Positions 33,438 to 63,885 of a stretch of 64,000 bases of DNA are shown here, piece after piece. The notes beneath the pieces are model-generated. The model saw only the letters and a program-made list of their open reading frames with translations. It did no database searches and was not told the DNA's origin. Each line of letters opens with the position of its first letter. The stretch's first letter is position 1. The stretch comes from Ruegeria sp. THAF33 (lineage in GTDB: Bacteria; Pseudomonadota; Alphaproteobacteria; Rhodobacterales; Rhodobacteraceae): the NCBI RefSeq assembly GCF_009363615.1, contig NZ_CP045385.1, positions 1 to 64,000 on the forward strand. The letters run 5' to 3'. A program made the position numbers and the translations under genes.

Positions 33438-33899
33438 TTAGCAGTTCGGGTCATTGCACCTTATCGCGAGGTCGGCGTTTACATCTTCGCCCGTTACATA
33501 ATCGGACCTCTCATCGTATTTGGGTTGTCCGTCACAAGCGAAGGCACGCCGAGCATTCACCATCCAGAAATGCGAAATAGTGCCGTCGGACAATCGCGTC
33601 TTCGAGATACGTTCGGCATCCGCATCCCATGGAACCGTCTGCCAATCACCGTTTGAAAACACCTCGATAATAGTAAAAGCGTCGGGCGACTGGTTGATCC
33701 GTGCGACGCACTGAACGCCTAGGTCCAAAAGCGCTACCAGGTAATTTGGGTACTCCTTTGATAGCCGCTCTTTCTTCTCTTTTAGCGTTGCAGGAATACG
33801 CGGGTCGTCGGTGCACCAGTCAGGACCGGAATTGCAGGAAGCCTGAGCTGCCCCCGCACAGATCAAGGCAACGCACAACGCGGTTTCAAAAAGTCTCAT
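33438..33899 (-). CDS. Exported Cys-rich protein of unknown function
   Basis: A 153-aa protein with a signal peptide (MRLFETALCVALICAGAAQA). The mature chain begins SCNSGPDWCTDDPRIP and ends IRCNDPNC, with several Cys that could form disulfides in the periplasm. It overlaps the 1899-aa giant gene by 4 bp (ATGA), so translation is coupled to it. No family recognised. Confidence 0.8.
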   Translation of the reverse strand: MRLFETALCVALICAGAAQASCNSGPDWCTDDPRIPATLKEKKERLSKEYPNYLVALLDLGVQCVARINQSPDAFTIIEVFSNGDWQTVPWDADAERISKTRLSDGTISHFWMVNARRAFACDGQPKYDERSDYVTGEDVNADLAIRCNDPNC

Positions 33900-48500: not shown

Positions 48501-49530
48501 CTGGCACACCATCAAGACTGGCCTCCAACCGCCGCAAATCAGATGTTGGGACCGGGTCATTCGTTATTGGCCGCGTGACACTTGTCGAAGGCAGAGCCCA
48601 ACCCATTTGCAACGTCGAAAATCGCAAATCAGAGTGACCGGCAGCAAGGGGAGCTGTCCCAAGCTTCCGCTCCTCAAGGGACCAATCGCCATCGGCCCAG
48701 AGGCCAACTTGCAAGGACGCACGTGACGACACTAGCCTGTTGAATACGCGGCGCATCGTTCCGTTGATGCGCGTCCTACTGACATCTTGAATCAGATTCA
48801 CGCTGCGGCGTGCAAAAGACCGCAGGTCCACGAAACCGCCGGATGTTAACGCATTCAAGCCAAACTGGCTTCCGGTTCGCCCCGTTGACCAGAAGTCTGT
48901 CAGGGCACGAACGCGCCAGCACAGTCGACCGCCGATACGTTGTCGTTTGAATCTGAACTGCACAAACCGATTAAAATCACGCGCAAACCTGACGTTCCTG
49001 ACACTGAGAAGATGCTCCCGGCCATCATCTATGCTATCTGCAGAAACGGCATCGAGTTGAAAAAAGGCTTCCGGACCATATCGAAAGGAATCAAGCTCCC
49101 ACAGAAACTCTCTCTCTCTCGACGCGGCAAACTCATTCAGGAACCTTTGCTTTTCGTGGCGTAGTTTGACGGCCTCATCCTTGGTTGCCGTCTTTAGAAG
49201 CTCATCTTTGGCATCCGATTGTCGTTTGGCTTCGAGATTGCCAAGTTCGGCATAGACACGGACAAAACGCCGGTCATCAGATCGCTCAAAGAATAGTCCG
49301 ATGTCATCAAGAGCATCGCCTCTCGTAGCCAAAGCCGGGGCAGCAGTTATCGCGAGGCTAGAACCCAGAAACGTACGGCGGGAAATTTTGCACCAGTTGG
49401 TCCAGGATGCAATCTGACCTTCTTCAACAAATTCTTCATTATTCAGCAACTCGTCCTTCAACAATTCCTCCACAAAAAAACATTGTTTAAACGTCCAAGT
49501 ACAATTAAAGAAACTCGAAAAAGCGTTCAA
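39595..49530 (-). CDS. Giant Tat-exported protein of unknown family (3311 aa)
   Basis: One uninterrupted frame of 3311 codons. Near the N-terminus S50-R-R-T-F-L-G, the hydrophobic LGSSLAITAAPALA and a likely cleavage at about residue 68 form a twin-arginine signal, implying export of a folded protein. The TTG at 49530 gives an overly long n-region; TTG at 49461 (behind GGAGGA) or 49449 may be the true start. The first 1600 or so residues are mixed beta; the middle (about 1750-2750) is helical and Glu/Lys-rich with coiled-coil character. The last 450 or so are Gly/Phe-rich amphipathic strands (for example FGGAGAFAFGPLTGQGRIMAG) resembling a beta-barrel or beta-helix. No known domain was recognised. 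It is followed directly by the 1899-aa gene. Confidence 0.92.
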   Translation of the reverse strand: MNAFSSFFNCTWTFKQCFFVEELLKDELLNNEEFVEEGQIASWTNWCKISRRTFLGSSLAITAAPALATRGDALDDIGLFFERSDDRRFVRVYAELGNLEAKRQSDAKDELLKTATKDEAVKLRHEKQRFLNEFAASREREFLWELDSFRYGPEAFFQLDAVSADSIDDGREHLLSVRNVRFARDFNRFVQFRFKRQRIGGRLCWRVRALTDFWSTGRTGSQFGLNALTSGGFVDLRSFARRSVNLIQDVSRTRINGTMRRVFNRLVSSRASLQVGLWADGDWSLEERKLGTAPLAAGHSDLRFSTLQMGWALPSTSVTRPITNDPVPTSDLRRLEASLDGVPGGAVVALGNFSEPERKVGETRKLTFGSGALPKIGLTYQIDPKNQIDPKSRDASQPYDEIVLRADERDGETVQSRMPREATLYVLGDWTTDLSVGVDAVGPLPGLSGALRRISRLRSSDRPTRDPFLFRNDITFGATHSARRARRLETPLGSLIVDTPPASDAPSEGPAYGSIFRDRAGLPVRYSMFATGSGTTSSVTLEWAEIALELIEAGFALKDAQYSRLTFEHAAFQLLYHRSGFSEPISGSYYVLDRGATADGAWCRIDLSLAKLKAARAWDLLNLNFRFAGLALEFVADAHEIVGLTNECMVIARPGENARSPDILDNRPTLVVEFPPQHLLEQAFFHPKDPDPPDVAREDPVSEAEKEAELLQLVPDGDAWDWSVYTPACSSLDGCKEIDPFVTDDVLLALSRLRIDKRISFRKEVLKRKIAKDKHGEMEVFADRFRTTAQAFNDGATVDLGFKTVLTKRQMPEDQLTYIGDLAMDPQASAIAREVARTIKNADVNAALQKLLHEARVAANRILSFQKTRETQAFSTDFDAAMALERQIASAVPRYALVRELWREEAIKELEQTATLPLETQNIEFALDFSFVDLSVKPTPSAVPSRAWAKDISGHLLNADATLIGRIAARLAGSVSPGGLAEARVSEPSRLAFKITCRDSVAVERVTHSRLDQPVDEENQLGKSRMDFSLSALTNWASMELAVTRRAATVWKPGTGGRLDPRSDRTEDLSAGAKLDALGFRVNVNSLDRLEDVRGVMRSPQALETSIELPARLILSPSDRAVFLSRKSVFNSVYSDIPVSADKISRVDPNCDLRPLFSARLFTGGIDPGIRAVASPDFRASFLWTGAADDAGRNLDVSYARLPGYGPPPAGNIAPWMLTRAETHAEGIGPRHLMERARAINPDEFKELEIDPKKTTKIEPGDYASDETYCAAVLAAAADEKPAVLPDIVRRMCVRLGLTVDHEKRILKRARAFRAALSANDRHQLVVLSSAFGLPVTGRRKSTGELVANSGQSEPDPRHVLGDLLPGSAIYIPPTLNVTELALTSLGGSVRADTSFVPPASARRLDGGALFDALTVEKWTQWTVLGRDVSTEVVYKGFLFPLGHRAALVKVTERTFYRDRLQPEQIRAYLRQRMFVRCTKPEKVYPAVGQANDGRAFPADQVTLLTTVTPDIADPYEGGGRVDIGRRPGLAFWPSLTALPGTEVRFEMNIGGQFTDLPLIFVDNTAANDEAALEILVQRYNEIETPDTSDGATRSAAIDPIKHMRTLRFGGAKMRYAPELESGSASIETSTWTLMAEGRERSVPRERRGAGADADIRNVEFRNTSFRFTPVLQGVDQPPFYPAVDTCHIRLRQNERLTGRVPDTPVIASFDGRYIKNGLPLYRQGEEGAESSEALVAIAEAAKEIGNGMQLFLRVLTPQAQSMGDKGDNSGAVFRPDGHIVALSRSKGAVTNFDGDENDWVVIPTPTPGADNVSVQRPSLAAEYNVPPKAEIAAKPVAAVPAVPEANQNPEDDVTEALRKARELYENLFSSDAKILGLVSIKDLFKFITEEFLEDPATGAPELAEMIQYGAGQVAGAAADAEEAAQNAQEFVKDKVLRPLKGALDTVQEHWAGLDTGLSQLQSASGTLIPSVTLQEVFPELWRGLQSLRAAINKAIGTEDPLEFTFACSEVYEAGQRFLNAIRVTAANPVQKFADTLISRVDLISGANLDISKVISDGVAEILGPFDPSNLPQELAQLIVGPGGTNDPYPWFAIPFPDSISGVDDAILQRIRQALMLRKRTVEDAVREFVENVLVKLLPPAAPPTPKKIEDVFKEEFAILAKKLGEALKRRIDAAIVVAKAEFAGTLPDDLARQLASLKAMYGLQDQGRSFLARLFIAADLPPAMTEMWRTEFERLKNAYTTAQALKKTIEDEPERLDVVAKRLIAFIEVFTGRLDFNVEEYCTFTGWTTLLDKIGKSLDLTKLAYCRIEELTLDPEVDNLCVYESGQISIMPPAGGDPDLCKTIHEAHGKIAEILEKLEDVDITDIAEKVNDKAENFVPSGKQEVADCVNGFIDFANVLKRELTKIRDAAGEAFCDLHNDALAVHALDASVQQALGQLGDFCKIGVLLKENKLAPATRQIDSFMKGRQELLKSLVVHFKSIVDAIGNVLKEDHIDKVLALAGIVQGLNVLIQLDKDDGGNRVETIVNEFKDLSEAFEEIAGDAATRLVGLIKPIVAQLAKTAAEVETALNGAIAEIEALRPPPNDNGQEAVIKRQLLAETIDKIDLTKLKGDAEDSREALEALSMELDKYPNGKTGFEAVNELQKIFEDIATNLAQPAERTALPAAAREEVVDAATQWINDQADEFIRLEEEGIEAAVKSLASIGEDILGYAVGEIYARADDFARASIGGVLPNSITANSLGLDPSDPLPERLTPAADMPNLGSVLGTDPGAEEQPRGLVHEVYVGLVALRQIILDAIKDEHGLLQDLSNKLQPQVVVGGTSTDRLTWATNGLATAFEPTAKPISDPANREFLRAFIQGWVDGEAAPVAIFTGLAEVLGQLLKGQLLDEIALDVVRDQIEEHILELVPSKIEMSYGFGTELSENMKKATAGIFEPRNKSKFRVDATIVIDFSNTISGVSDGIGNGGPQFAPPSVSAKAEGSLGPFDINLVGDFKAVKLIFAGARFITEDGRDPVFKVDFVDFEIGEELEFVQQLASYFTLSSDSGFFIEPTISPLGLKAGYALPSTTISIGTASFFNVAITASARLPFDGADARFGASLSRRRSPFTVSIAPYGGSGFFAIEANTKGIVGFEASFEFGGAGAFAFGPLTGQGRIMAGIYVRQTSLPDVGKVTEISGTFFAGGSANIWIFSFSSSLYVRLGMVNGDMSGEAVFTFSFSMGIKDFEFSVQVWKKEGKGFQPTQQASLHPSLRTLRRALHDGVQLASLQSENEFVEVVTVRDPVIRVKVDPPNGNWRDHRKYYDMTMVCEDLF

Positions 49531-53451: not shown

Positions 53452-53937
53452 TTACGGCCTACGGTTTGCGGCCTTCCTAAGCGCGCTTGTCACATCTTCA
53501 ACATCGGAGTGTTTCCAGATGTCATCACGCAAAAAGAACCGATAACCTTTCTTGTCATCGGGTTTACCAATTTCCTCGACGACGCTGACCGGCGCCATTG
53601 CCGCGCGGATCACTCGATACTGCTCATCGAACAGCACACCGGCCAGAACGTCGAAGTCATTCAGAGATTTGATGGCGGATAGTTCGCGGGACGTGTTGCG
53701 CTGGTAGATCCGTCGAGACTTGATCTGATATCGGATTCCTGTCGCGTCTGTCGCATCGTATCCCTTTTCCGAGTTGGGAGCTAACTTCCAACCAAACGCT
53801 TCCCGAAACAGAAACTCTGCCCAATCTCCAGCGGGGTTGTTTCCAGTCCTCAATATGCCCTGCCTGCGCAATTCGGCCAGGATGTCAGCGTACAGTGAAA
53901 GAAGTTCAGACGGTGGGTTGTCGGTCAGATCATTCAT
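53452..53937 (-). CDS. PD-(D/E)xK nuclease-like hypothetical protein
   Basis: A 161-aa protein. GDWAEFLFREAFGWKL, then KGYDATDATGIRYQIKSRRIYQ gives an E-(n)-D-(n)-QxK arrangement like that of PD-(D/E)xK nucleases, with Asp in GYDATD and Lys in QIKSRR. The remainder (NDFDVLAGVLFDEQYRVIRA) fits the same fold. A DNA-binding or cleaving role in plasmid defence or maintenance is possible. It is divergent from structured element A. Confidence 0.7.
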   Translation of the reverse strand: MNDLTDNPPSELLSLYADILAELRRQGILRTGNNPAGDWAEFLFREAFGWKLAPNSEKGYDATDATGIRYQIKSRRIYQRNTSRELSAIKSLNDFDVLAGVLFDEQYRVIRAAMAPVSVVEEIGKPDDKKGYRFFLRDDIWKHSDVEDVTSALRKAANRRP

Positions 53938-53977
53938 TACAGTGTTATGTCGGGATAGCCGTTAAATGGCCATACGG

Positions 53978-54711
53978 GCAAATCCCGCGCCTTTGGGCGC
54001 GTGACCGCGTGCTAGTCGGACGCCGGCACACCGGCCTCCGACCCGAACCAATCACGACCTTTCTCCCTTCGGCCCAGGTGGCGGTGAATCTGTCTCGTCC
54101 CGAGCCAGCTTAACCGCGGCCAAATGGTCGCCAGGACATGCTTGTTTCGGCCCATAGGGTTACGCCCGCTTTTGCAAGAGGTCTTGGAGATCCGCGCGAG
54201 GCGCGCGGCTCGCATTGATTATTGGACAGGGCAGGGGATCGACGCGCTAAAGCGCGCTCACCCCAGCCCTGGCATTATCCAATAGTGGGGCTGCTGTGAC
54301 CGGCAAGCCGGTCCCATCATCCCGATCGCATTCAGTTCAGTTGCATCTAACTCCGCTGCCTCTCGCCTCCGGCTCGAACGCGGTGTCAGAGCCCCTTCAA
54401 TTTGATGTTCTGAATGCGCTCTAATCCGCCCGCATCCTGCGTCGGGCCGGTCAAGGGGCAAGCGCCGCGCGTTGCGCGTCGTCTCCACGTCAAAAAACCC
54501 GGTTCCTCCCACGCGCAAGCGCGCGGTTCCCTCCCATTTTTTTGCCACTCCGACCCCGTGACAGTCCCGCCCCAGGCCACAGGCTGGGCTTTGCCCACCC
54601 TGTTCTGCCAGCCGAAAGATGTGGCCCATCTTTCAGCTAACAAAACAAAGAGGTCGCGCCCATTAGCGGATAGCCGGGGAACACTGGCAACCGCATCGCC
54701 ACGAAGGAAAG
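53978..54711 (+). ncRNA. Large structured RNA candidate, copy A
   Basis: About 734 nt of non-coding sequence dense in hairpins, homologous to 59839-60470. Stems include CGCGCC/GGCGCG near 53986, GTCGGA-c-GCCGG with its partner (54015-54042), CCGCGCG/CGCGCGG (54192-54208), a 65-nt compound hairpin closed by TATTGGA/TCCAATA (54220-54284), GACCGGC/GCCGGTC (near 54298), ACAGG-c-TGGGC/GCCCA-c-CCTGT (54579-54603) and GAAAGATG/CATCTTTC (54614-54634). A 99-nt insert (54328-54426) forms an extra stem CGCATTCAG/CTGAATGCG absent from the other copy. C-rich TTCCTCCC (54503-54510) is unpaired. It ends just before the 73-aa gene at 54719. G-U pairs favour the plus strand. Confidence 0.65.
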
Positions 54712-54718
54712 AGTTATT

Positions 54719-54940
54719 ATGACTGAATATCGTCTTGGATCATCGGAAATGGTTCATACACCCGGCCTAATTGCATGGGCCATCAACGGGTATCACTTCG
54801 CAGATGATCGTCCGGTTCTGCTGAACAGCATGTGCCAGAGCTTCCCCACAGTTCCCAACACCGCCATCGAACAGCTTTTGTCCAAGGCCGTGCCTTACAC
54901 GGTTGAGGATAAAACGGTCGTTTTCAGCGTGGACGAATAG
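54719..54940 (+). CDS. Small plasmid protein of unknown function
   Basis: A 73-aa protein (MTEYRLGSSEMVHTPGLIAW, then NTAIEQLLSKAVPYTVEDKT). GGAAAGAG lies just upstream. It follows structured element A directly. No family recognised; not related to the DUF932 protein that follows copy C. Confidence 0.65.
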   Translation: MTEYRLGSSEMVHTPGLIAWAINGYHFADDRPVLLNSMCQSFPTVPNTAIEQLLSKAVPYTVEDKTVVFSVDE

Positions 54941-54993
54941 TCCGGTTCTGAAACGGCCAATGTGCAACCTGCGCACGGAAGGAGGTGAAATCC

Positions 54994-55107
54994 ATGAGTA
55001 AAGAAACTCTGCAACAGCGTCGGAAAGAAGCCGATGAATTGCTCAAGAAGGGCGGTCTATCCGCAAAAATCGCCCGCGCCTTCTTGAAAACTCAAGCAAC
55101 CGCCTAA
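54994..55107 (+). CDS. Very small basic protein
   Basis: A 37-aa frame (MSKETLQQRRKEADELLKKG, then GLSAKIARAFLKTQATA) with a near-perfect Shine-Dalgarno GGAGGTG 6-7 bp upstream. Helical and rich in Lys and Arg. A hairpin with a GCAA loop follows at 55119. It lies between the 73-aa gene and the ParB-like gene. Confidence 0.7.
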   Translation: MSKETLQQRRKEADELLKKGGLSAKIARAFLKTQATA

Positions 55108-55118
55108 GCGGCCTCGCT

Positions 55119-55136
55119 CTACCCCGCAAGGGGTAG
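55119..55136 (+). terminator. GNRA-loop hairpin
   Basis: CTACCCC (55119-55125) and GGGGTAG (55130-55136) around the tetraloop GCAA. No U-tract follows, so it may be a weak terminator or an RNA processing or stability element between two genes. Confidence 0.5.
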
Positions 55137-55180
55137 GGCACCAATAACAAAAACTTAGCTTTGAGACAAGGACTTGCCCA

Positions 55181-56377
55181 ATGAGCAAACTCGAAACATT
55201 CACCGCACCGGAAACCATCGAAACCGTTGCCCTGTCCAATCTGTACCTGTCAGACATCAATCCGCGTCAGGACGTTTCCGACGAAGGCATTGCGCTGCTG
55301 GCAGAAAGCCTTGTCACGTGCGGCCTGATCCAGAACTTGAGCGGTCTGCGCGACAAGGACGGTAAAGTCGGCATCGTCGCAGGTGGCCGCCGTTTCCGCG
55401 CGCTCAAACTTGCCGTGACCGAGCGCCCCGATCTGGCGCAGGTGCCGGTCAAGATCACCGATAACCCCTTTGTGGCCGAGCAATGGGCCAATGCCGAGAA
55501 CACCGCCCGCGAAGAACTGGACCCGATTGACGAGGTTCGTGCCTATGGGAAAATGGCCGCGAAATCCTTGTCTGTTGGCAAGATCAGCAACGCATTCGGC
55601 GTCACCGAGGCGCATGTGCGCCGCCGCCTTGCGCTGGCTGATCTGCCCAATCCTGTCCTGGATGCGGTGAAAGCCGGGGAAATCAGCCAAGGCATTGCCA
55701 AGGCTATGACCATCTGTGACGACGAGGCAAAAATCCTTGAAGCACTGGAAGGTGCAAAAACCGGGCGCTTGTACAATGAATACTATGTCCGCCAAGCCCT
55801 GACACCGGAGTCTGTGCGCGACTCAGACCGCAGAGCCAAGTTTGTTGGACAGGATGCCTTTGAAGACGCTGGCGGAACCGTCACCAGTGATTTGTTCCAG
55901 AACGAAACCCTGTTCAATGACCCTGAATTGCTGGACCGCCTGTTTACCGAGAAACTGGCCGAGGAAGCCGAAAAGCTGCGCGAAGCGGAAGGCTGGGCAT
56001 GGGTCATGATCACCGACGACAGCAACCCATATTTCTACGAGGTCCGGGACGCCCACGGGGTCGCTCAAACTCCGGTGATTGAAGGTGTTTTGACCGAGGA
56101 ACAGGCTGAGCGCTTTGACGAGTTGGCCGAGCTTGAAGAAGGTGACGCGCTGGACGAGGCCGGACAAGCCGAACTGGATGCGATGCAAAAGGTTCTGGAT
56201 GGTGAATACCAGTCCGCGCAGAAGGCGTTGGCCGGGATCATGGTTTTTGTCCGTCACAATGGCGACATCTCCGCTTTGCGTGGCCTCATTAAGCCCGAGG
56301 ATCAGGCAGCGGCTATTGAGCGGGAGTTCATCGAAGCCCCCTCAGAACCTTCCAAGCCCACCACGCGGGAAGCTTAG
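55181..56377 (+). CDS. Plasmid ParB-like protein, N-terminal part before an in-frame stop
   Basis: A 398-codon frame. ParB/sulfiredoxin domain at about residues 10-110 (LYLSDINPRQDVSDEGIALL, IVAGGRRFRALKLAV, AENTAREELDPIDEVRAYGK), then an HTH (VGKISNAFGVTEAHVRRRLALA, LPNPVLDAVKAGEISQGIAK). It ends at a TAG (56375-56377), but the same frame continues openly to 57058. Such ParB-like proteins usually exceed 600 aa, so this is a broken or stop-containing gene. It is distinct from the parB at 1305 and probably a KorB-like regulator. Confidence 0.85.
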   Translation: MSKLETFTAPETIETVALSNLYLSDINPRQDVSDEGIALLAESLVTCGLIQNLSGLRDKDGKVGIVAGGRRFRALKLAVTERPDLAQVPVKITDNPFVAEQWANAENTAREELDPIDEVRAYGKMAAKSLSVGKISNAFGVTEAHVRRRLALADLPNPVLDAVKAGEISQGIAKAMTICDDEAKILEALEGAKTGRLYNEYYVRQALTPESVRDSDRRAKFVGQDAFEDAGGTVTSDLFQNETLFNDPELLDRLFTEKLAEEAEKLREAEGWAWVMITDDSNPYFYEVRDAHGVAQTPVIEGVLTEEQAERFDELAELEEGDALDEAGQAELDAMQKVLDGEYQSAQKALAGIMVFVRHNGDISALRGLIKPEDQAAAIEREFIEAPSEPSKPTTREA

Positions 56378-56410
56378 AAACCGGCCTTCTCGCAGAAGTT
56401 CAATGACGAC

Positions 56411-57058
56411 ATGGTAGCGATCCGTCTGGGAGCCATTCAAACGGCCATGCTCGACAAGCCCGAGTATGTTCTGAGCCTGTTTGCCTTCTATGCGACACCA
56501 GCATCCGGCCACCACACCAGCCTGTTCGGGTTTGGCTACGGCGGTGCGGAGCGGAACGCCCCCGAGATTGACGACCAGTACAATCTTGATCCGCGCCTTG
56601 GCGGAGAAAGGGACGAGGCAGCAGAGGAAGCCTATAACCAGTTTCAGGAAATGGCCGGGAAAGGCAGTGTCGAAGCGTTCAAGGCTTTCCGCGATCTGGG
56701 CAAGAAAACCCGCAACGGCGAAATCACCGCGTTTCTCGCGCGGCGCTTTACAACCCAGCAGGCCGACTTCATGGCTGAAATCGCGGCTGATGTTGATGCT
56801 GATATTCGCTCGATCTGGACGCCTTCCGAGACGAACTGCTTCAAGCGGCTCAAGGCTGTACAGTTGGATGAACTGTACAAAGACCTTCTGGATTTGCACA
56901 TGGACACCGATGCCTACCGCGCGTTCAGCAAGTCCAAGAAGGGCGAGAAGAACCAAGCGCTGCCCAAGCTGTTCAACGATCCAGAGCATCAAAAGGCTTT
57001 GCGCATCACCGCCGAACAGAAAGCCCGCATTGACGCATGGGTCCCTGAGTGCTTCTAA
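56411..57058 (+). CDS. ParB-like protein, C-terminal part after the in-frame stop
   Basis: In the same frame as 55181-56377. Eleven codons after the TAG (KPAFSQKFNDD) lead into the ATG at 56411. The 215 codons that follow (MVAIRLGAIQTAMLDKPEYV, then FYATPASGHHTSLFGFGYGG) look like the normal C-terminal domain of long plasmid ParB-like proteins. With readthrough the product would be about 625 aa. No good ribosome binding site precedes 56411, so separate translation is uncertain. Confidence 0.7.
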   Translation: MVAIRLGAIQTAMLDKPEYVLSLFAFYATPASGHHTSLFGFGYGGAERNAPEIDDQYNLDPRLGGERDEAAEEAYNQFQEMAGKGSVEAFKAFRDLGKKTRNGEITAFLARRFTTQQADFMAEIAADVDADIRSIWTPSETNCFKRLKAVQLDELYKDLLDLHMDTDAYRAFSKSKKGEKNQALPKLFNDPEHQKALRITAEQKARIDAWVPECF

Positions 57059-57069
57059 AACAATTAGGG

Positions 57070-57088
57070 CAGGGCGCATTGCGCCCTG
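57070..57088 (+). terminator. Terminator-like hairpin after ParB-like gene
   Basis: CAGGGCGC and GCGCCCTG around ATT, 12 bp after the TAA at 57058, followed by TTCCC. A stable stem with a weak T tract. Confidence 0.55.
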
Positions 57089-57152
57089 TTCCCAGCAGGG
57101 ATTTAATCATGACGTATTCCCGCAAGGTGACTGCCGAAACGCAATGAAAGAA

Positions 57153-57170
57153 TGATAGCATACTTGCTAT
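57153..57170. promoter_or_regulatory. Candidate FitA-type operator
   Basis: TGATAGCA (57153-57160) and TGCTAT (57165-57170) form an inverted repeat about 60 bp upstream of the antitoxin gene. The half-sites match the TGATAGCA/TGCTATCA sites that FitAB of Neisseria binds. A second palindrome, CATATC-AGC-GATATG, lies just downstream. Confidence 0.6.
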
Positions 57171-57228
57171 TTGCTTGCACTGCCATCATATCAGCGATAT
57201 GCTGTCATTATCAAACATGGAGGATGAA

Positions 57229-57462
57229 ATGGCAAATCTGACAGTCAGAAATCTATCTGATGACGTTCACAGTCGCGTTCGGTTTGTCGCGGCAGAACGT
57301 GGCATCAGCACTGAGGAAGCCGCGCGGCAACTTCTCGATGAGGCGTCACGGCCAGCCGAGAAGGTTGGCGACGTGATTGTGGAATACGTGCAGGGCCTTA
57401 ATGCATTCTTGCCAGATATTGAACGTAGTGGCGACAAAGCAGAACCGGCGGACTTCGGGTGA
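57229..57462 (+). CDS. FitA-like ribbon-helix-helix antitoxin
   Basis: A 77-aa antitoxin: MANLTVRNLSDDVHSRVRFV, then AAERGISTEEAARQLLDEAS is the RHH DNA-binding part; the C-terminal tail (VEYVQGLNAFLPDIERSGDK) would wrap the PIN toxin. The start at 57229 is set by GGAGGA 4 bp upstream. It overlaps the toxin gene by 4 bp. Confidence 0.88.
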   Translation: MANLTVRNLSDDVHSRVRFVAAERGISTEEAARQLLDEASRPAEKVGDVIVEYVQGLNAFLPDIERSGDKAEPADFG

Positions 57463-57881
57463 TTATTCTAGACACAAACGTGCTGTCCGACCCTATGAAG
57501 GAAAGCCCTTCCAAGGCGGTGATTGGGTGGTTGAATGCGCTGCATAGCGCGCAGTTTTATACCACGACGATCACCATCTTTGAGGTACGTTACGGGATCG
57601 AATTATTGCCTGACGGCAACCGGAAAGCTGCGCTTTGGAAGGGGTTCGACTTTACGCTAGGCCGTCTGTGCGGCAACCGGATTTTGCCATTTGACCGTGC
57701 GGCTGCGGAGGCCCTTGCAAACATGCAAGCCGAAGCGAAAGCCTATGACGTGAAGTTGGCGGACGCGCAGATTGCGGCAATTGCAAAGACACACGGTTTT
57801 TCAGTCGCAACAAGAGACGTGAAGCCGTTTCAGTTCTTAGGTGTCAATGTTTTGAATCCTTGGGATCACCCATCCGATTGA
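57459..57881 (+). CDS. VapC/FitB-type PIN-domain toxin
   Basis: A 140-aa PIN ribonuclease starting at GTG in the GTGA overlap with the antitoxin stop. The acidic active site is intact: Asp in ILDTNVLSDP, Glu in TIFEVRYGIE, Asp in KLADAQIAAIA and Asp in SVATRDVKPF. It would cut tRNA or rRNA when the antitoxin is lost, giving post-segregational killing. Confidence 0.93.
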   Translation: MIILDTNVLSDPMKESPSKAVIGWLNALHSAQFYTTTITIFEVRYGIELLPDGNRKAALWKGFDFTLGRLCGNRILPFDRAAAEALANMQAEAKAYDVKLADAQIAAIAKTHGFSVATRDVKPFQFLGVNVLNPWDHPSD

Positions 57882-57893
57882 GGGACTGGAAGA

Positions 57894-58436
57894 ATGACCA
57901 AAGCCACCACCCCAACAGCACCAGAGAGCGCCATTCGCCGCGTCTGGAAGTCCGCGCAGATGTATATTGCGTTCCACAAGGACCAGAACAAACGGCAGCG
58001 CAGCGAGCCGAAGTTCTGGCCCCCGAAGTACGGCAGCGCGTCCGTTCATGGCGATCCGAGCGAGCAGGAGGCCATTGTTGTGGTCAAAGCCGCCGACCCG
58101 GAGGACACTCAGGATGTGCAAATCAAGCTGCACCCCGGTCGGATTGTTGTGCGTCGTGATGCAGAAAGCTGGTGGCAAGGGGTTGCGGTCGAAGATCATT
58201 CTGTAACCGTCCGAATGGCGGATGGCACAATTATTGAGGTTCGACATGATGGGTCTGTCAAACGACGTTCCGCTGAAGATGAAACCCATGTCGAAGCGGA
58301 TGGCAGCATTTTCAAATGGACCGAACATGCGGAAACAACAATGACAGGTGATGGGATCGAAATGACCCGTCGTACTGAGGACCGGATTACCGCGATCACC
58401 TATGACGGCGTTGTCGATCGGGCGCGCAAGCGATAG
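57894..58436 (+). CDS. Plasmid protein of unknown function
   Basis: A 180-aa protein. A basic N-terminal part (IRRVWKSAQMYIAFHKDQNK) is followed by beta-rich, repeated hairpins (VTVRMADGTIIEVRHDGSVK, HVEADGSIFKWTEHAETTMT), like beta-solenoid or baseplate-spike tails. No known family recognised. It starts 12 bp after the toxin gene and ends before a strong terminator. Confidence 0.7.
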   Translation: MTKATTPTAPESAIRRVWKSAQMYIAFHKDQNKRQRSEPKFWPPKYGSASVHGDPSEQEAIVVVKAADPEDTQDVQIKLHPGRIVVRRDAESWWQGVAVEDHSVTVRMADGTIIEVRHDGSVKRRSAEDETHVEADGSIFKWTEHAETTMTGDGIEMTRRTEDRITAITYDGVVDRARKR

Positions 58437-58480
58437 CCTCACCAAGATTCTTTCATTTTCCTCTTGTGGCGAGAGATACT

Positions 58481-58504
58481 GGCCCACTTCGGTGGGCCTT
58501 TTTT
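58481..58504 (+). terminator. Rho-independent terminator
   Basis: GGCCCAC and GTGGGCC around the TTCG region, followed directly by six T. It closes the ParB-like/FitAB/180-aa transcription unit and separates it from structured element B. Confidence 0.88.
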
Positions 58505-58538
58505 CTTACCGGCGGCTTGATGGTGCAATGTCCTTGTT

Positions 58539-59199
58539 GTCCTGACCGCGCGGGGTTGGAACCCCGCTCCATCAGGACTGTGCGCTTCCAGCGCAAGGGG
58601 CCGCTTCAGCGGCCAGGCCGCGTTTCTTCATCATGGTTTCGGGAATTGAAAGAGGCCAGCATGAGGGGGTAGATGCTGGCCTCTGGGGGAATTACCGTCA
58701 GTGAGCGGTAAGTGGTAGGGTTGAGACTTTGATAACCGACTCAAACGCAGGCCGAAATTAGGGCTTTCCCGTAGCAGCGGATGCTTCTTGCGCCGCTGCC
58801 AGCAAGAACCGGCGACTTGCGCTGCCACCGCGCCCTTAATCCTTGTTCCGCAGGTCATTCCGTTTCGGGAAAGCGGCCAGATCGCGGATTCGCCCAATGC
58901 CCATCTGTCGGATCGAGGTGATGTTGCCGCGTTTCTCTTTGTTCAAGCGTTCCGGGCGCAGCGGGCCCAGAAGCTCTTGCCTTTCACTCGGTCTGACAGC
59001 CTCAATCCCGTTGCCAGTGAAGATCCTCGTTCACGTGTTTCTTCTCTGATGAACATAAGCGGGCAGTCGGGGGAGCCGCGCAGCCCCCGTTCCGGGCGCT
59101 CCGCTTCAACAGGTAATTTCCCCTGCGCTGATCGCGCATTCCTCGCGGAGCAAATTACCTGCTGACACCCCCTTTATGCCCGCTTCTTCCATGTTCATC
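58539..59199 (+). ncRNA. Large structured RNA candidate B
   Basis: About 660 nt without a gene but full of stems. GTCCTGA/TCAGGAC encloses GCGGGGTT-GG-AACCCCGC (58539-58578). GGCCGCT/AGCGGCC lies near 58600. A perfect 12-bp stem at 58651-58684 has the loop GAGGGGGTAG. TTACCG/CGGTAA is near 58692 and GCAGCGG/CCGCTGC near 58774. A long-range helix of 18 bp, with a 5-nt bulge on one side, joins 59048-59065 to 59177-59199 and encloses CAGGTAATTT/AAATTACCTG (59110-59161). The loop AGGGGGT (58664-58670) is complementary to unpaired ACCCCCT (59167-59173). It ends 28 nt before the 67-aa gene. Unrelated in sequence to A and C. Confidence 0.55.
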
Positions 59200-59227
59200 G
59201 AAACACTCAAAAAACGAGGATCAAACA

Positions 59228-59431
59228 ATGGCAACTCAAACTCTGAAGCTGAACGTCAAAGCCGGTGAAAAAGATGGCAAAAACTTCTGGAACCGCTGCG
59301 GTGTCGCGTTCGTAAACACTGACGATCACGGCAACATCACCTCGATCCAGGTCAAACACGATATGTTCCCCGGCGTCGAAATGGTGGCCTTCCCGAAACG
59401 CAATGACGACAACGAACAGGTGACCGAATAA
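59228..59431 (+). CDS. Small plasmid protein of unknown function
   Basis: A 67-aa protein (MATQTLKLNVKAGEKDGKNF, then VAFVNTDDHGNITSIQVKHD) with GAGGA upstream. A compact beta-rich domain is likely. It is headed by structured element B and followed by a hairpin. Similar short proteins sit beside DUF932 genes on alphaproteobacterial plasmids as far as I recall; no function is known. Confidence 0.75.
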   Translation: MATQTLKLNVKAGEKDGKNFWNRCGVAFVNTDDHGNITSIQVKHDMFPGVEMVAFPKRNDDNEQVTE

Positions 59432-59439
59432 AAAGGGGT

Positions 59440-59459
59440 AGGGCGGCGCAAGTCGCCCT
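59440..59459 (+). terminator. Probable terminator after the 67-aa gene
   Basis: AGGGCG (59440-59445) and CGCCCT (59454-59459) around GCGCAAGT, followed by a T-rich stretch, 9 bp after the stop codon. Confidence 0.6.
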
Positions 59460-59559
59460 TTCCTTTGCTCCGGCTTCGGTCCGGACGCAATAGCGTCCCA
59501 GATTGTCGTAGCCGATGCCTTGGCGGCGCACACCTGCAGCGTCATTGGCCGTCGCTGAT

Positions 59560-59642
59560 CTCATTTTGAGGTCAGTTCCAGCAAACAGATGTATCCACCT
59601 GGTTCCCTAGTCGGTTACGTCTTTCTTCGGCCTCATTTTGAG
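59560..59642. repeat. Duplicated small palindrome CTCATTTTGAG
   Basis: CTCATTTTGAG occurs at 59560-59570 and again at 59632-59642, 72 bp apart start to start, in a non-coding stretch. Each copy is a near-palindrome (CTCA and TGAG). Two operators for one repressor, controlling the RNA elements or DUF932 downstream, is a possible reading. Confidence 0.45.
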
Positions 59643-59683
59643 ATAAGAAATGCGGTGCTTGCAAAGACGCCACTCACAATACG

Positions 59684-59760
59684 ACCGCACCGGCCACAAC
59701 CAGCCGTTCCCTCCGGCTAAATTATGATCACTTCCTCCCATTTGATCAGGCCGGTGCGGT
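59684..59760 (+). ncRNA. Three-way-junction RNA candidate with C-rich loops
   Basis: A 77-nt element closed by a perfect 12-bp stem ACCGCACCGGCC (59684-59695) and GGCCGGTGCGGT (59749-59760). Inside are AGCCG/CGGCT (59702-59718) and TGATCA/TGATCA (59725-59748). The second inner stem abuts the closing stem. Its 12-nt loop contains TTCCTCCC, complementary to Shine-Dalgarno sequences, as in the CCUCCUCCC-loop sRNAs known from alphaproteobacteria. On DNA it could instead be a binding site. Confidence 0.55.
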
Positions 59761-59838
59761 TCCTAAAACATCACCTTCAATTGAAAGCCGCCAAAACTCT
59801 GTACAGTAGGCTGCGCTGTACAAATGACGGCGTTATGC

Positions 59839-60470
59839 GCAAATCCCGCGCCTTGGGGCGCGTGACCGCGTGCTAAGCTTCAGCCGGCAGACCGGCTTAC
59901 GCCCCGAACCAACCACGCCCTTTCTCCCTTCGGCCTGATGCGGTGAATCTGTCTCGTCCCGAGCCAGCTTAACCGCGGCCAAATGGTCGCCAGGACTTGC
60001 TTGTTTCGGCCCTTCGGGTAACGCCCGCTTTTGCAAGAGGTCTGGGAGATCCGCGCGCGGCGCGCGGCTCGCATTGATTATTGGACAGGGCAGGGGATCG
60101 ACGCGCTAAAGCGCGCTCACCCCGGCCCTGGCATTGTCCAATAGTGGGTCTGCTGTGACCGGCAGGCCGGTCCCATCATCCCGATCCGCCCGCATCCTGT
60201 GTCGGGCCGGTCAAGGGGCAAGCGCCGCGCGGTGCGCGTCGTCTCCATGTCAAAAAACCCGGTTCCTCCCACGCGCAAGCGCGCGGTTCCCTCCCATTTT
60301 TTCGCCACTCCGACCCCGTGACAGTCCCGCCCCGGGCCACAGGCAGGGCTTCGCCCTCCTGTTCTGCCAGCCGATAGATGTGGTCCATCTATCAGCTAAC
60401 AGATCAGAAGGCCGCGCCCATTGGCGGAAAGCTGGGAAACACCGGCAACCGCATCGCCACGAAAGAAAGG
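59839..60470 (+). ncRNA. Large structured RNA candidate, copy C
   Basis: About 632 nt, homologous to 53978-54711 without its 99-nt extra stem. The same order of stems is kept: CGCGCC/GGCGCG, AGCCGG/CCGGCT (59882-59897), CCGCGCG/CGCGCGG (60051-60067), the compound hairpin closed by TATTGGA/TCCAATA (60079-60143), GACCGGC/GCCGGTC, ACAGG-c-AGGGC/GCCCT-CCTGT (60339-60362) and GATAGATG/CATCTATC (60373-60393). Two of these differ from copy A by paired changes that keep the helix. TTCCTCCC is at 60263-60270. It runs up to the DUF932 gene at 60481. Confidence 0.65.
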
Positions 60471-60480
60471 AAGTAAGTCT

Positions 60481-61353
60481 ATGGGTTACAATCGTTATAT
60501 GAGCGGAATGTCCTGCGGTGGTCTGGTCACAGGGGAAGCCTTGACCGACGATCAACTGCGCTCCGCCGTGCCCTCGATCTTCGCAACCGAAGCCCACGAA
60601 AGCCGGTCTGACCGCTTTGTTGTGGTGCCGACAATCGACGTTCTGACCGGACTGCGTAAGGAAGGGTTTGACCCATTCTTTGCTCAGCAGGCCAACACCC
60701 GCATTGAAGGCAAAGCCGAGTTCACCAAACACATGCTGCGCTTGCGCCACCGCTCAATCACCAATGCCGAAGGCGAAGCCTTTGAAATCATCTTGGTCAA
60801 CGCCAATGATGGAACCAGCAGCTATCAGATGGTGCCGGGTTTCTTTCGGTTTGTCTGCGCTAATGGCCTGATGGTTGGCGACAGCTTTAACGAGGTGAAG
60901 GTGCGCCATTCTGGTGACGCCATTCATGAGGTGATCGAAGGCGCATACACTGTTTTGGAAGATGCGCCCCATGTGGCCGAGCAGGTTGAAACCTTCAAAG
61001 GTATCTCTCTGGACGACGCCGAGCGCAAAGTGTTCGCGGAAGTGGTGCATGAACTGCGCTTTCCCGAGGCTCACAAGGAAGATGGAAAGCCCGCGCCGGT
61101 TCAGGCTGACGCTCTGTTGAGAACCCGCCGCAATGCCGACCGTCTGACCGATCTGTGGACCGTTGGCAATGTACTGCAGGAGAACGTCATCAAGGGCGGG
61201 CTGCATGGTCGCGTCAAGGATGGCAATGGCCGCACACGCCGACAGCGCACCCGTGGCGTCAAAGGCATCGACCAGAACAAAGCTCTGAACCGGGCCGTCT
61301 GGTCTCTCACTGAAAAGATGGCAGAGCTGAAGGGCGTAAGCCTCGCAGCCTGA
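60481..61353 (+). CDS. DUF932 plasmid/phage-like protein
   Basis: A 290-aa protein of the DUF932 family: MSCGGLVTGEALTDDQLRSA, FVVVPTIDVLTGLRKEGFDP, HMLRLRHRSITNAEGEAFEI, then FRFVCANGLMVGDSFNEVKV and the tail GIDQNKALNRAVWSLTEKMA. Members are common on plasmids and phages of Proteobacteria; the function is unknown. The start has GGAAG upstream. Its leader is structured element C. Confidence 0.92.
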   Translation: MGYNRYMSGMSCGGLVTGEALTDDQLRSAVPSIFATEAHESRSDRFVVVPTIDVLTGLRKEGFDPFFAQQANTRIEGKAEFTKHMLRLRHRSITNAEGEAFEIILVNANDGTSSYQMVPGFFRFVCANGLMVGDSFNEVKVRHSGDAIHEVIEGAYTVLEDAPHVAEQVETFKGISLDDAERKVFAEVVHELRFPEAHKEDGKPAPVQADALLRTRRNADRLTDLWTVGNVLQENVIKGGLHGRVKDGNGRTRRQRTRGVKGIDQNKALNRAVWSLTEKMAELKGVSLAA

Positions 61354-61361
61354 AGAACAGC

Positions 61362-61384
61362 GCGCGGCTCGATCCGGGCCGCGC
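61362..61384 (+). terminator. Hairpin after DUF932
   Basis: GCGCGGC (61362-61368) and GCCGCGC (61378-61384) around TCGATCCGG, 8 bp after the stop. No T tract; possibly a stability or pausing element before the next gene. Confidence 0.5.
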
Positions 61385-61410
61385 ATACCCCCTGACTCGG
61401 AGCAGAGACC

Positions 61411-61968
61411 ATGCAAAATGAAATCGTCAACACACCCGCACACGAGCGTTTCAACAACTTGCCGAAAGGCGACAAGCTGGACCAATTCGAGTGGTTCGAA
61501 ATCATGCCGTGCCGAAATGATGAAAGCGAAGGGTGCGCCGTCCAGTGCGAAGCCGGAGAGGTCGAGTTTTGGAGCATTTACGGCCGGAAGAACGAAGGCA
61601 CCAAAGACGCGCCGGAGTTTCTGGCGATGGCAGTCCATGACGCATGGGATGCCAAGGCGATTGTAAAAATCGCACGCCAGATTGCCACGGAAACCGGCAA
61701 GGGCTTCTTGGCTGGTGACGTCGCCTATGGGCAGTTTCCCCGCCAGAGCGGTCAGCTCGTGCCAGTGACCGAATTCATTGAGATTGCCGAGGCTCTGACA
61801 TTCGCCATCCACGAAGCCAACGAAAGCGAGATTCCTGACGAAGACCAGCGCGTCGATGATTTTGATAATCATCCGCTGGCCGATCTGCGCGAGGCGTTTG
61901 TCGATTACTCCGACTATTCCGGTTCTGACCAGCTCGACCCGTACCAGTCAGACGCCACCCTTCACTGA
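61411..61968 (+). CDS. Plasmid protein of unknown function
   Basis: A 185-aa acidic protein (HERFNNLPKGDKLDQFEWFE, EFWSIYGRKNEGTKDAPEFL, AVHDAWDAKAIVKIARQIAT). GGAGCAGAG precedes the ATG. It ends in an Asp-rich tail. No family recognised; position after DUF932 is typical of plasmid accessory genes. Confidence 0.75.
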   Translation: MQNEIVNTPAHERFNNLPKGDKLDQFEWFEIMPCRNDESEGCAVQCEAGEVEFWSIYGRKNEGTKDAPEFLAMAVHDAWDAKAIVKIARQIATETGKGFLAGDVAYGQFPRQSGQLVPVTEFIEIAEALTFAIHEANESEIPDEDQRVDDFDNHPLADLREAFVDYSDYSGSDQLDPYQSDATLH

Positions 61969-63276: not shown

Positions 63277-63885
63277 CCCCCGGTAGTGCGATTTTCACGC
63301 GGTCTGAAAATCTTCAACCCTTCCATTCTCAGCATCTACCCCACGGGTCCGATTAGAGCCAGCGTAAAGGCTGGCCGCTCAGTCCCCGTTCGGGCCACCC
63401 AACGCGAAGCCGCGCGACTGGCACCGTGCCAAGATCCCGACTGAGACACCCTGACCTGATGTGCTACAGCCGGTCAGCTCGTCGGGTCGCGCGGCTGCAG
63501 CCCAGCCGATTTGTTGGCGCACTGACCTGACCGGCAGAGCCAATGCCAACTCGTCGGCACCCGCCGCCAGAGCGTCGGGAAGTTGAGCGCGCCCAGGCGC
63601 GCGGAAAATGCAGATTGCATTTAACGTGCCGGAAAGTGACGGGCGCTGTTCGGGCAGCCCACGCTTTGCGTGATTGCCCTGCGCCAGTCCACCGGCACCC
63701 ACGCCTGTTGATTGGAAAAGGGACGGAACCCTTTTCCCGGCGTGGAAATAGCCTCCAAGAGCAAAGTTGCTCCGATCATGATTGGAGAAAATGCGGATTT
63801 CTCAAATCACATCGGTTTACTCTTGGTGATTATGACAGGATAAGGTAGTTGTGTTACAAATCACAAATACAACCAGAGGTATAGA
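63277..63885. other. Non-coding stretch, possible transfer origin
   Basis: About 600 bp without a convincing gene, upstream of an RHH protein. It holds CCGGTCAG and CTGACCGG (near 63470 and 63531), a perfect 9-bp hairpin GGAAAAGGG/CCCTTTTCC (63714-63737), a near-palindrome CTCC-ATCATGAT-GGAG type near 63770, and GTTGT/ACAAC just before the RHH gene. oriT regions typically lie just upstream of a mobC-like RHH gene; no relaxase gene is in view. Confidence 0.4.

What the first reader, a model, noticed from the sequence alone, without database searches (positions are those of the whole stretch)
53978..60470. Two diverged copies of a 630-730 nt non-coding element keep their stems by compensatory changes
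53978-54711 (A) and 59839-60470 (C) share the same series of hairpins but differ at many bases. In the stem at 54579-54603 the pair T54585-A54597 is A60345-T60357 in C. In the stem at 54614-54634 the pair A54616-T54632 is T60375-A60391 in C. Other differences fall in loops: AGG to CGG at 54199, ATA to TTC at 54152, TTTG to TTGG near 53992. The genes after A and C are unrelated, so the element itself is the duplicated unit. This is the pattern of a conserved folded RNA (or single-stranded DNA) and not of a spacer. Two copies of a large ornate RNA on one plasmid would be new as far as I know.
Basis: partly seen in the sequence, partly recalled or inferred. Interest (0 to 1): 0.93.

Follow-up and report, generated by a model that had tools for sequence, protein, structure and literature searches.

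The report
Folded single-strand DNA switch on plasmids
Two related folded DNA elements sit in front of the first genes that a mobile DNA would bring into a new bacterial cell, and their evolution suggests that the incoming single DNA strand itself folds, probably so that protective genes can be switched on before the second strand is made.

Summary
In detail: A and C are 92% identical hairpin-rich copies, and homologues show strong compensatory change. They belong to a family found in 92 PLSDB records and 87 of 390 genomes of the order. The interpretation changes: the strand kept folded is the minus strand, not the mRNA-sense strand. Stem pairs hit by one transition become A-C on the plus strand (G-T on the minus) two to three times as often as G-T, opposite to RNase P RNA and like F-plasmid Frpo. 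The minus strand is also the predicted transferred strand: a MOBP nick motif lies at 63835-63842, then VirD1/VirD2-like genes. All 75 collected 3' modules have an RBS and ORF within 200 nt, median 39, mostly leading-region genes (ardC, ParB-like, DUF932, DUF3768). Best reading: a new family of single-stranded promoter/initiation sites, without detectable sequence similarity to Frpo; F has the same layout. Against: no conserved sigma-70 boxes; late-entering position on MobQ plasmids; MOBF oriT unresolved; no expression data.

The parts
53978..54711 (+). Element copy A; gene-sense strand +, the strand inferred to fold is -
   Evidence: BLASTN to C; modules M5+MC+M3 by nhmmer
53978..54176 (+). 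A, 5' module M5
   Evidence: nhmmer E 2e-51; the profile was built partly from A and C; pair table and minus-strand wobble
54189..54276 (+). A, core hairpin module MC, with the near-invariant internal loop GGGGATCGACG...CGCTCACCCC
   Evidence: nhmmer E 1.1e-21; pair table
54425..54674 (+). A, 3' module M3 (multibranch domain closed by TCCGCC...GGCGGA)
   Evidence: nhmmer; covariation; model R1 217 bits, A being in the seed
54328..54423 (+). Stretch present in A only, between MC and M3; holds the best plus-strand sigma-70-like match of A (TTCAAT-18-TCTAAT, 54396-54425)
59839..60470 (+). Element copy C
   Evidence: DNA folds of both strands
59839..60035 (+). C, module M5
60048..60135 (+). C, module MC
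60185..60433 (+). C, module M3
   Evidence: model R1 214 bits, C being in the seed; - strand z -5.6, + strand z -2.75
54719..54940 (+). 73-aa ORF directly after A
   Evidence: no Pfam or NCBIfam hit
55181..56377 (+). ParB-like protein (ParB_N + HTH_ParB), downstream of A
   Evidence: Pfam; F's leading-region ParB-like protein has the same two domains
57211..57881 (+). FitA-like antitoxin and PIN-domain toxin, between A and C
   Evidence: Pfam; NCBIfam VapB/VapC models below cut-off
60481..61353 (+). DUF932 protein directly after C
   Evidence: Pfam PF06067 E 4.7e-44; a DUF932 gene also lies downstream of the oriT-proximal repeat copy of F
63835..63842 (-). Predicted MOBP nic TATCCTG/T on the - strand, imperfect inverted repeat 5' of it. 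Makes the - strand the transferred strand, with A and C on its leading side
   Evidence: sequence; consensus (C/T)ATCCTG(C/T) from PMC3772185 passages; the same core CCTTATCCTGTCA lies 42 nt before a VirD1-like gene in L096
63886..64000 (+). Start of a VirD1/MobC-like RHH gene (63886-64305, runs off the window); a VirD2-like relaxase follows at 64302-66155 of the contig

Best explanation
A and C are two copies of a leading-region element that works as folded single-stranded DNA. During conjugation the minus strand enters the recipient 5' end first (inferred from the nic motif). The element on that strand folds into a conserved multi-hairpin structure that imitates double-stranded DNA and recruits RNA polymerase, possibly a primase as well. 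Transcription, possibly also primer synthesis, then runs on the incoming strand toward oriT into the gene directly downstream (DUF932 after C; the small ORF and ParB-like gene after A). Establishment genes would thus be made before second-strand synthesis and shut off once the DNA is double-stranded. Shown here: the fold, its covariation, the strand bias of its substitutions, the tight coupling to start codons, the gene families. Inferred: transferred strand, polymerase recruitment, timing.
For: (1) Strand test. At 60 M3 pairs common to all four folds, changes from Watson-Crick to A-C (G-T on the minus strand) outnumber those to G-T 57:28; at unpaired columns minus-type:plus-type transitions are 56:94 (OR 3.4, p 1.3e-5). 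MC 39:14 (OR 2.7, p 0.0025) and M5 41:14 (OR 2.2, p 0.02) agree. Both halves of the M3 set agree: 33:15 in 36 ardC-adjacent copies, 32:15 in 31 others. RNase P RNA by the same code gives 24:61 (p 3.7e-5 against an even split), different from M3 at p 6.6e-7; measured against its own unpaired columns the RNase P bias is not significant (OR 0.65, p 0.14). F-type Frpo gives 13:6 (OR 3.2, p 0.059). (2) The minus strand folds better, partly from composition, since its shuffles are also more stable, but z is lower too. (3) 75 of 75 M3 places have an SD plus an ORF of at least 45 codons within 200 nt, median 39 nt, IQR 38-41; antisense side 23 of 74. (4) Of 25 elements in loci with a MOBP-type relaxase hit over 60 bits, 22 lie on the relaxase's strand and upstream of it. 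In all 20 loci with the MobQ nic TAAGTGCGCCCT, nic is on the strand opposite to the element, so the transferred strand is the template (nick position from PMC4814116 passages); these loci are largely one lineage. (5) F has the same layout and gene families.
Against: No strongly conserved -35/-10 pair in M3: the best column averages -0.7 on the plus and 2.4 on the minus strand over 67 copies. A and C share a minus-strand CTGTCA-17-AAAAAT (score 6.7; two F Frpo copies have 7.1 on that strand), but it is weak in the family. A alone has a plus-strand match in its extra stretch (6.0), which could be an ordinary promoter. On MobQ plasmids the element lies at the late-entering end of the transferred strand, where early expression gains little. 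In MOBF plasmids (L006, L019, L114) elements and mobF are convergent and no oriT was found; if oriT lies at the 5' side of the mobF operon the template would be the wrong strand. L099 and L102 have MobF-query hits on the element's own strand, not resolved. 3 of 25 MOBP-locus elements break the rule (L088; L120; L117, a 45-nt fragment) and two loci (L097, L120) have the nic motif on the contrary strand. That motif is expected about 0.3 times per searched stretch by my arithmetic, so distant ones mean little. The wobble test cannot separate minus-strand DNA from a minus-strand RNA. No transcript or mating data. The contig has no T4CP by PF02534, so transfer would need help in trans.
Confidence: 0.66

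Rival explanations
1. Single-strand initiation (ssi/sso-like) site: the folded transferred strand is a priming or primosome-loading site for complementary-strand synthesis; expression of the next gene is incidental.
For: No conserved sigma-70 boxes. On MobQ plasmids the element sits toward the 3' end of the transferred strand, where one primer would serve most of the strand. Frpo also primes, by the title of Masai and Arai cited in PMC11541004.
Against: Every collected M3 has an ORF with an SD close downstream, median 39 nt, and copies multiply with leading operons; a pure priming site has no reason for that coupling.
Confidence: 0.13
2. Structured 5' leader RNA of the downstream mRNA (riboswitch, attenuator or antiterminator).
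For: Immediately upstream of SD and start codon; covariation; A's extra stretch holds a plus-strand promoter-like match.
Against: Wobble polarity opposite to RNase P and to that expected for a plus-strand RNA; the stricter consensus scan finds no plus-strand promoter within or just upstream of A or C; no Rfam family.
Confidence: 0.07
3. A large non-coding RNA transcribed from the minus strand.
For: The wobble signature fits any minus-strand nucleic acid. The matrix scan gives a minus-strand promoter-like site near the right end of A (54690-54667), absent from the listed best four of C; a minus-strand terminator-like site lies about 380 nt left of C (59459-59440).
Against: The consensus scan finds no minus-strand promoter at the right end of A or C and no terminator at their left ends (scanned from 53700). 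Does not explain the coupling to plus-strand start codons or the link to the transferred strand.
Confidence: 0.06
4. EGeRS1-like establishment-gene leader: a hairpin-rich 400-600 bp region that blocks read-through and acts by an unknown mechanism, as on pLS20.
For: Same size, multiple copies, position directly upstream of the RBS of ardC and other establishment genes (PMC8708921, sections 13 and 20 and passages).
Against: On pLS20 the transferred strand is the non-template strand, the authors' main argument against an ssDNA promoter; here the predicted transferred strand is the template. Blocking read-through is not exclusive with the best explanation.
Confidence: 0.08

Closest known systems
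Frpo / ssi single-stranded promoters of F-like plasmids (Frpo1, Frpo2); also ColIb-P9
   Same: Multi-copy, hairpin-rich, leading region, upstream of ssb/ParB-like/psiB and DUF932 operons pointing to oriT. F: two copies of about 600 nt, 5.39 kb apart, 92% identical by PMC9849209 (passages) and 89% over 559 nt by my BLAST, with the flmAB toxin-antitoxin between. Window: 92%, 5.86 kb, FitA/PIN pair between. Same wobble direction. DUF3560 follows both kinds of element.
   Different: No detectable sequence similarity (three module HMMs vs eight IncF-type leading regions, no hit at E<=10); three-module build; no conserved -35/-10 found; mostly in Rhodobacterales; also on MobQ plasmids at the late-entering side.
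EGeRS1 of Bacillus plasmid pLS20
   Same: 400-600 bp hairpin-rich sequences in several copies upstream of the RBS of establishment genes including ardC
   Different: Transferred strand is the non-template there; mechanism unknown; sequences not compared here
Large ornate RNAs (GOLLD, ROOL, OLE)
   Same: Length and complexity of the fold
   Different: No Rfam match at gathering score and the plus strand is not the strand kept folded
Single-strand origins (sso) of rolling-circle plasmids (recalled)
   Same: Folded ssDNA near the 3' end of the displaced strand, as on MobQ plasmids here
   Different: Here each copy is coupled to an ORF start; sso consensus motifs not tested

Membership tests
Frpo/ssi single-stranded promoter | Sequence homology to known Frpo/ssi | tested here: not met
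   nhmmer with M5, MC, M3 against eight IncF-type leading regions: no hit at E<=10
Frpo/ssi single-stranded promoter | Lies in the leading region upstream of leading genes that point to oriT | tested here: met
   For A and C: predicted nic 63835-63842, VirD1/VirD2-like genes beyond it; oriT predicted, not proven. Not met on MobQ plasmids (late-entering side)
Frpo/ssi single-stranded promoter | Transferred strand is the template of the downstream gene | tested here: met
   For A and C by the predicted nic. Window and L096 nic within 45 nt of the VirD1-like gene; of 15 distinct MOBP loci 11 have the motif, 9 on the expected strand, 2 contrary (L097, L120), 4 none; 20 of 20 MobQ-nic loci. MOBF unresolved
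Frpo/ssi single-stranded promoter | Stable fold of the transferred strand | tested here: met
   Predicted folds; strand bias of substitutions
Frpo/ssi single-stranded promoter | -35 and -10 boxes rebuilt in the stem | tested here: inconclusive
   No well conserved linear pair in 67 copies; A and C share CTGTCA-17-AAAAAT on the minus strand; no mismatch-aware search of the folded form
Frpo/ssi single-stranded promoter | RNA polymerase transcribes or primes from the ssDNA form | not testable with these tools
   Needs in vitro transcription or mating experiments
EGeRS1 | Hairpin-rich multi-copy region directly upstream of the RBS of establishment genes | tested here: met
   definition from PMC8708921
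EGeRS1 | Transferred strand is the non-template strand | tested here: not met
   (predicted nic)
Rfam large ornate RNAs (GOLLD, ROOL, OLE) | Match to the covariance model | tested here: not met
   0 matches at gathering score in the window; at E<1 in 53900-60550 only mir-5615 and isrB, both below gathering
sso of rolling-circle plasmids | Conserved sso motifs and RNA-polymerase-dependent priming (recalled) | not tested
   -

The most novel reading that the evidence does not exclude
This is a structured single-stranded-DNA family, recognised by covariation plus wobble polarity in the way RNA families are. Its fold is kept on the conjugatively transferred strand and is read by RNA polymerase, or by a primase, without classical sigma-70 boxes. 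It arose independently of Frpo in Alphaproteobacteria and spread over plasmids of at least three relaxase classes (MOBP, MOBQ, MOBF) as a modular zygotic-expression cassette.
Probability: 0.42. Interest if true: 0.86.

Novelty: new variant of a known kind. Interest (0 to 1): 0.72.

Why it matters
Single-stranded promoters are described for enterobacterial F- and I-type plasmids, with further candidates proposed by structure elsewhere (PMC9849209 and PMC11541004, passages). Three full-text searches that would catch this family returned no paper: Rhodobacterales + plasmid + leading region, single-stranded promoter + Alphaproteobacteria + plasmid, leading region + DUF932 + plasmid. The listings show no title on it, but most of those papers I did not open, and subscription journals and preprints are not held. 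A sequence-unrelated, widespread counterpart with the same downstream gene families would show that zygotic expression from the incoming strand is a convergent plasmid strategy, and would flag many unnamed establishment genes in marine bacteria. The wobble-polarity test is a cheap way to ask of any covarying intergenic element which strand folds.

Tried and rejected
RNA reading: rejected by the strand test, with RNase P as control. My first RNase P run mixed strands and was meaningless; the oriented rerun is.

Sigma-70 promoter inside the fold: searched on both strands by matrix (matrix values recalled) and by consensus; nothing well conserved. TTGACA-like letters in M3 have no -10 at 15-19 nt on the plus strand.

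Decayed coding gene: not tested by a protein search; the ORFs of at least 60 aa listed inside A and C overlap one another in several frames, and homologues vary by paired changes and indels.

R-scape was not available; searches are my own tree-based versions (Fitch reconstruction), so p-values are approximate. E-values from model R1 are rough and it holds only 37 pairs. The genome-wide searches use a first look that scores few candidates per genome, so their tallies are lower bounds.

Rows dropped: loci L020 and L004 as duplicates of W and L023, M3 hits under about 190 nt, near-identical rows (67 of 75 kept); MC hits under 70 nt and M5 under 150 nt, then near-identical MC rows (58 of 60 kept; M5 26 of 26); incomplete Frpo copies, such as that of L159 (19 kept). 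Of the places listed I fetched 60 regions; of 92 plasmid records, stretches of 10, plus the one phage-labelled record.


Full report
What is there. A (53978-54711) and C (59839-60470) are 92% identical over two collinear blocks; A has about 97 extra nt. The window is the first 64 kb of an 811,101-bp contig of a five-contig genome. Contig 5 holds a further copy (model R1, 174.6 bits); contig 4 gives only a 29-nt match and a weak M5 hit.

A family. Distant BLASTN finds A in 92 of 72,556 plasmid records, 123 places. The ten genera named in the tally (Phaeobacter 30, Paracoccus 18, Pseudosulfitobacter 15 and seven others) are Rhodobacterales by recall; ten records are not named there. One of 50,697 phage records also matches. 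C has a match in 87 of 390 genomes of the order, 43 of 139 genera. A covariance model of the 3' module hits 3 of 289 genomes drawn over the class: the own genome, one of another family strongly, one marginally at E 9.5e-4 (strict filters). The element is modular: M5 (about 200 nt), MC (core hairpin) and M3 (about 250 nt, a multibranch domain closed by TCCGCC/GGCGGA). No M3 hit accompanies M5+MC in L013, and no M5 hit was found on the MobQ plasmids.

The fold is under selection. On 34 homologues 39 of 77 pairs of the minus-strand structure show a change on both sides; covariation score 0.281 against 0.109 +/- 0.006 in shuffles (0/500) and at most 0.117 slid. With 67 non-redundant copies, 4 pairs are significant among all column pairs against 60 tree-based simulations, all in helices. 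Weak helices exist: helix 13 is 48.5% and the single pair of helix 5 41.2% paired.

Which strand folds. If the plus strand (mRNA sense) folded, single changes in stems should favour G-U on it. At the 60 M3 pairs that both strands and both parameter sets predict, I counted changes along a tree: Watson-Crick to G-T 28, to A-C 57, to another Watson-Crick pair 62, other 84. At unpaired columns the bias is the other way: plus-type transitions 94, minus-type 56 (Fisher p 1.3e-5; against an even split the 57:28 has p 0.0011). MC gives 39 A-C to 14 G-T (unpaired minus:plus 141:136, p 0.0025), M5 41 to 14 (121:92, p 0.02). Copies directly before ardC (36) give 33:15, the other 31 give 32:15. The RNA control, RNase P of 30 genomes of the order, gives 24 A-C to 61 G-T; relative to its own unpaired columns (76:126) that is not significant (p 0.14), against an even split p is 3.7e-5, and its difference from M3 has p 6.6e-7. 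The known single-strand promoter Frpo, 19 copies from IncF-type plasmids, gives 13:6 (p 0.059) and also folds better on the strand complementary to its genes (-220.8 vs -201.9 kcal/mol as DNA). The consensus M3 domain folds better on the minus strand with RNA (-183.2 vs -155.3) and DNA parameters (-126.1 vs -110.0); so do A and C singly and the whole of C. Part of that is composition, because shuffled minus strands are also more stable, but the z-scores go the same way. So the minus strand is most likely the folded molecule. The test cannot tell minus-strand DNA from a minus-strand RNA.

The minus strand is probably the transferred strand. Just past the window lie a small RHH gene (63886-64305) and a VirD2-like relaxase (64302-66155; PF03432; NCBIfam VirD2 model below its cut-off). 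Forty-four nt before the first is TATCCTGT on the minus strand (63835-63842), with an imperfect inverted repeat 5' of it. This matches the MOBP nick consensus (C/T)ATCCTG(C/T) (PMC3772185, passages); a relative (L096) has the same core 42 nt before its VirD1-like gene. Cleavage there makes the minus strand the transferred strand, with C entering about 3.4 kb and A about 9.1 kb after the start, and the plus-strand genes transcribed from it toward oriT.

Survey. I pooled 82 loci and grouped modules into 100 elements in 74 loci. The first recognised gene within 700 nt on the same strand is ardC 48, DUF3768 13, ParB-like 6, DUF932 4, DUF3560 1, none of my queries 28. All 75 M3 places have a ribosome-binding sequence and an ORF of at least 45 codons within 200 nt, median distance 39, IQR 38-41; the antisense side passes the same rule in 23 of 74. 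Of 25 elements in loci with a MOBP-type relaxase hit over 60 bits, 22 are on the relaxase strand and upstream of it; exceptions are in L088, L117 (a 45-nt fragment) and L120. Of 15 distinct MOBP loci 11 hold the nick motif within 2.5 kb upstream of the relaxase operon; in 9 it is on the strand opposite to the elements, in L097 and L120 on the same strand. About 0.3 motifs per stretch are expected by chance, so the near ones (window 44 nt, L096 42 nt, L013 113 nt) carry the weight. In all 20 loci with the RSF1010-type nic TAAGTGCG/CCCT, it is on the strand opposite to the element (nic from PMC4814116 passages), though most of these share one gene order and so one origin. There the element lies beyond mobQ, or in four loci (L069, L071, L079, L088) next to nic, on the side that enters last. 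In MOBF plasmids (L006, L019, L114) elements and mobF converge and oriT could not be placed; L099 and L102 show MobF-query hits on the element's own strand.

Comparison with F. F's leading region holds two repeats of about 600 nt, in three blocks each, 5.39 kb apart, one before ssb-DUF905-ParB-like-psiB, one before a small ORF and DUF932, these genes pointing to traM. Couturier et al. (PMC9849209, passages) name Frpo2 before ssb and Frpo1 before ygeA and ygeB, give 92% identity and about 5 kb distance, note the flmAB toxin-antitoxin between them, and report no increase of fusion signal in transconjugants when either is deleted. That ygeB is the DUF932 gene I infer from position; my BLAST gives the two copies 89% over 559 nt. 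The window matches: 92%, 5.86 kb, a FitA/PIN pair between, ParB-like after A, DUF932 after C. Another copy precedes DUF3560 and a gene annotated as methyltransferase (L007; the second has no Pfam hit), as on IncF plasmids. No sequence similarity between the elements was found. ArdC, the gene most often downstream, is an ssDNA-binding antirestriction protein needed in the recipient (PMC7213743, abstract and passages).

Mechanism and limits. The best reading is an ssDNA promoter or initiation site that switches on establishment genes from the incoming strand. I did not find well conserved -35/-10 boxes. Three tested Frpo copies score no better than 4.4 on the plus strand; on the minus strand two F copies share a 7.1 site and A and C share a 6.7 site, CTGTCA-17-AAAAAT, whose column averages only 2.4 over the family. 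A alone has a 6.0 site on the plus strand in its extra stretch. Priming of the complementary strand would explain the MobQ position better than early expression does. EGeRS1 of pLS20 (PMC8708921, sections 13 and 20 and passages) is similar in size, number and place but has the transferred strand as non-template. By the membership test this is not a proven Frpo: sequence homology is not met and promoter boxes are inconclusive. It works like one. Three full-text searches aimed at this family returned nothing.

Noticed in passing
L018 (PP438431.1, 1-20387): A GenBank record named 'Synechococcus phage Ssp-JY41, complete genome' looks like a Rhodobacterales MobQ plasmid: RepA-like, ParA, MobA/MobL relaxase, T4CP-like, ArdC-like and this element.
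   Followed up: partly
window 59056-59200: By eye, a long inverted repeat (CAACAGGTAATTT...AAATTACCTGCTG) sits directly before the 67-aa ORF at 59228; none of the three module profiles reports it, so it may be another kind of leading-region element.
   Followed up: no
window 33896-49530, - strand: Two adjoining giant ORFs of 1899 and 3311 aa; the first has no Pfam match, the second was not searched.
   Followed up: no
window 60754-61872 and 56342-57079, - strand: Long antisense ORFs (372 and 245 aa) mirror the DUF932 gene with its neighbour and the 215-aa ORF; perhaps by-products of coding composition.
   Followed up: no
L120:11537-11868: One M3+MC copy lies on the strand opposite to its neighbours and to the nearby relaxase, the clearest exception to the orientation rule.
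   Followed up: no
window 54593-54653, - strand: Rfam mir-5615 matches the M3 hairpin of A at 34.9 bits, E 3.4e-4 (gathering score 82), on the minus strand; I take it as chance.
   Followed up: no
G495:C7:1053-1290 and C4:3-209 (L162, L165; also L167, L168): The only strong model hits outside the own family among 289 class genomes: two M3 copies in another alphaproteobacterial family, suggesting spread beyond Rhodobacterales. Surroundings fetched but not analysed.
   Followed up: partly
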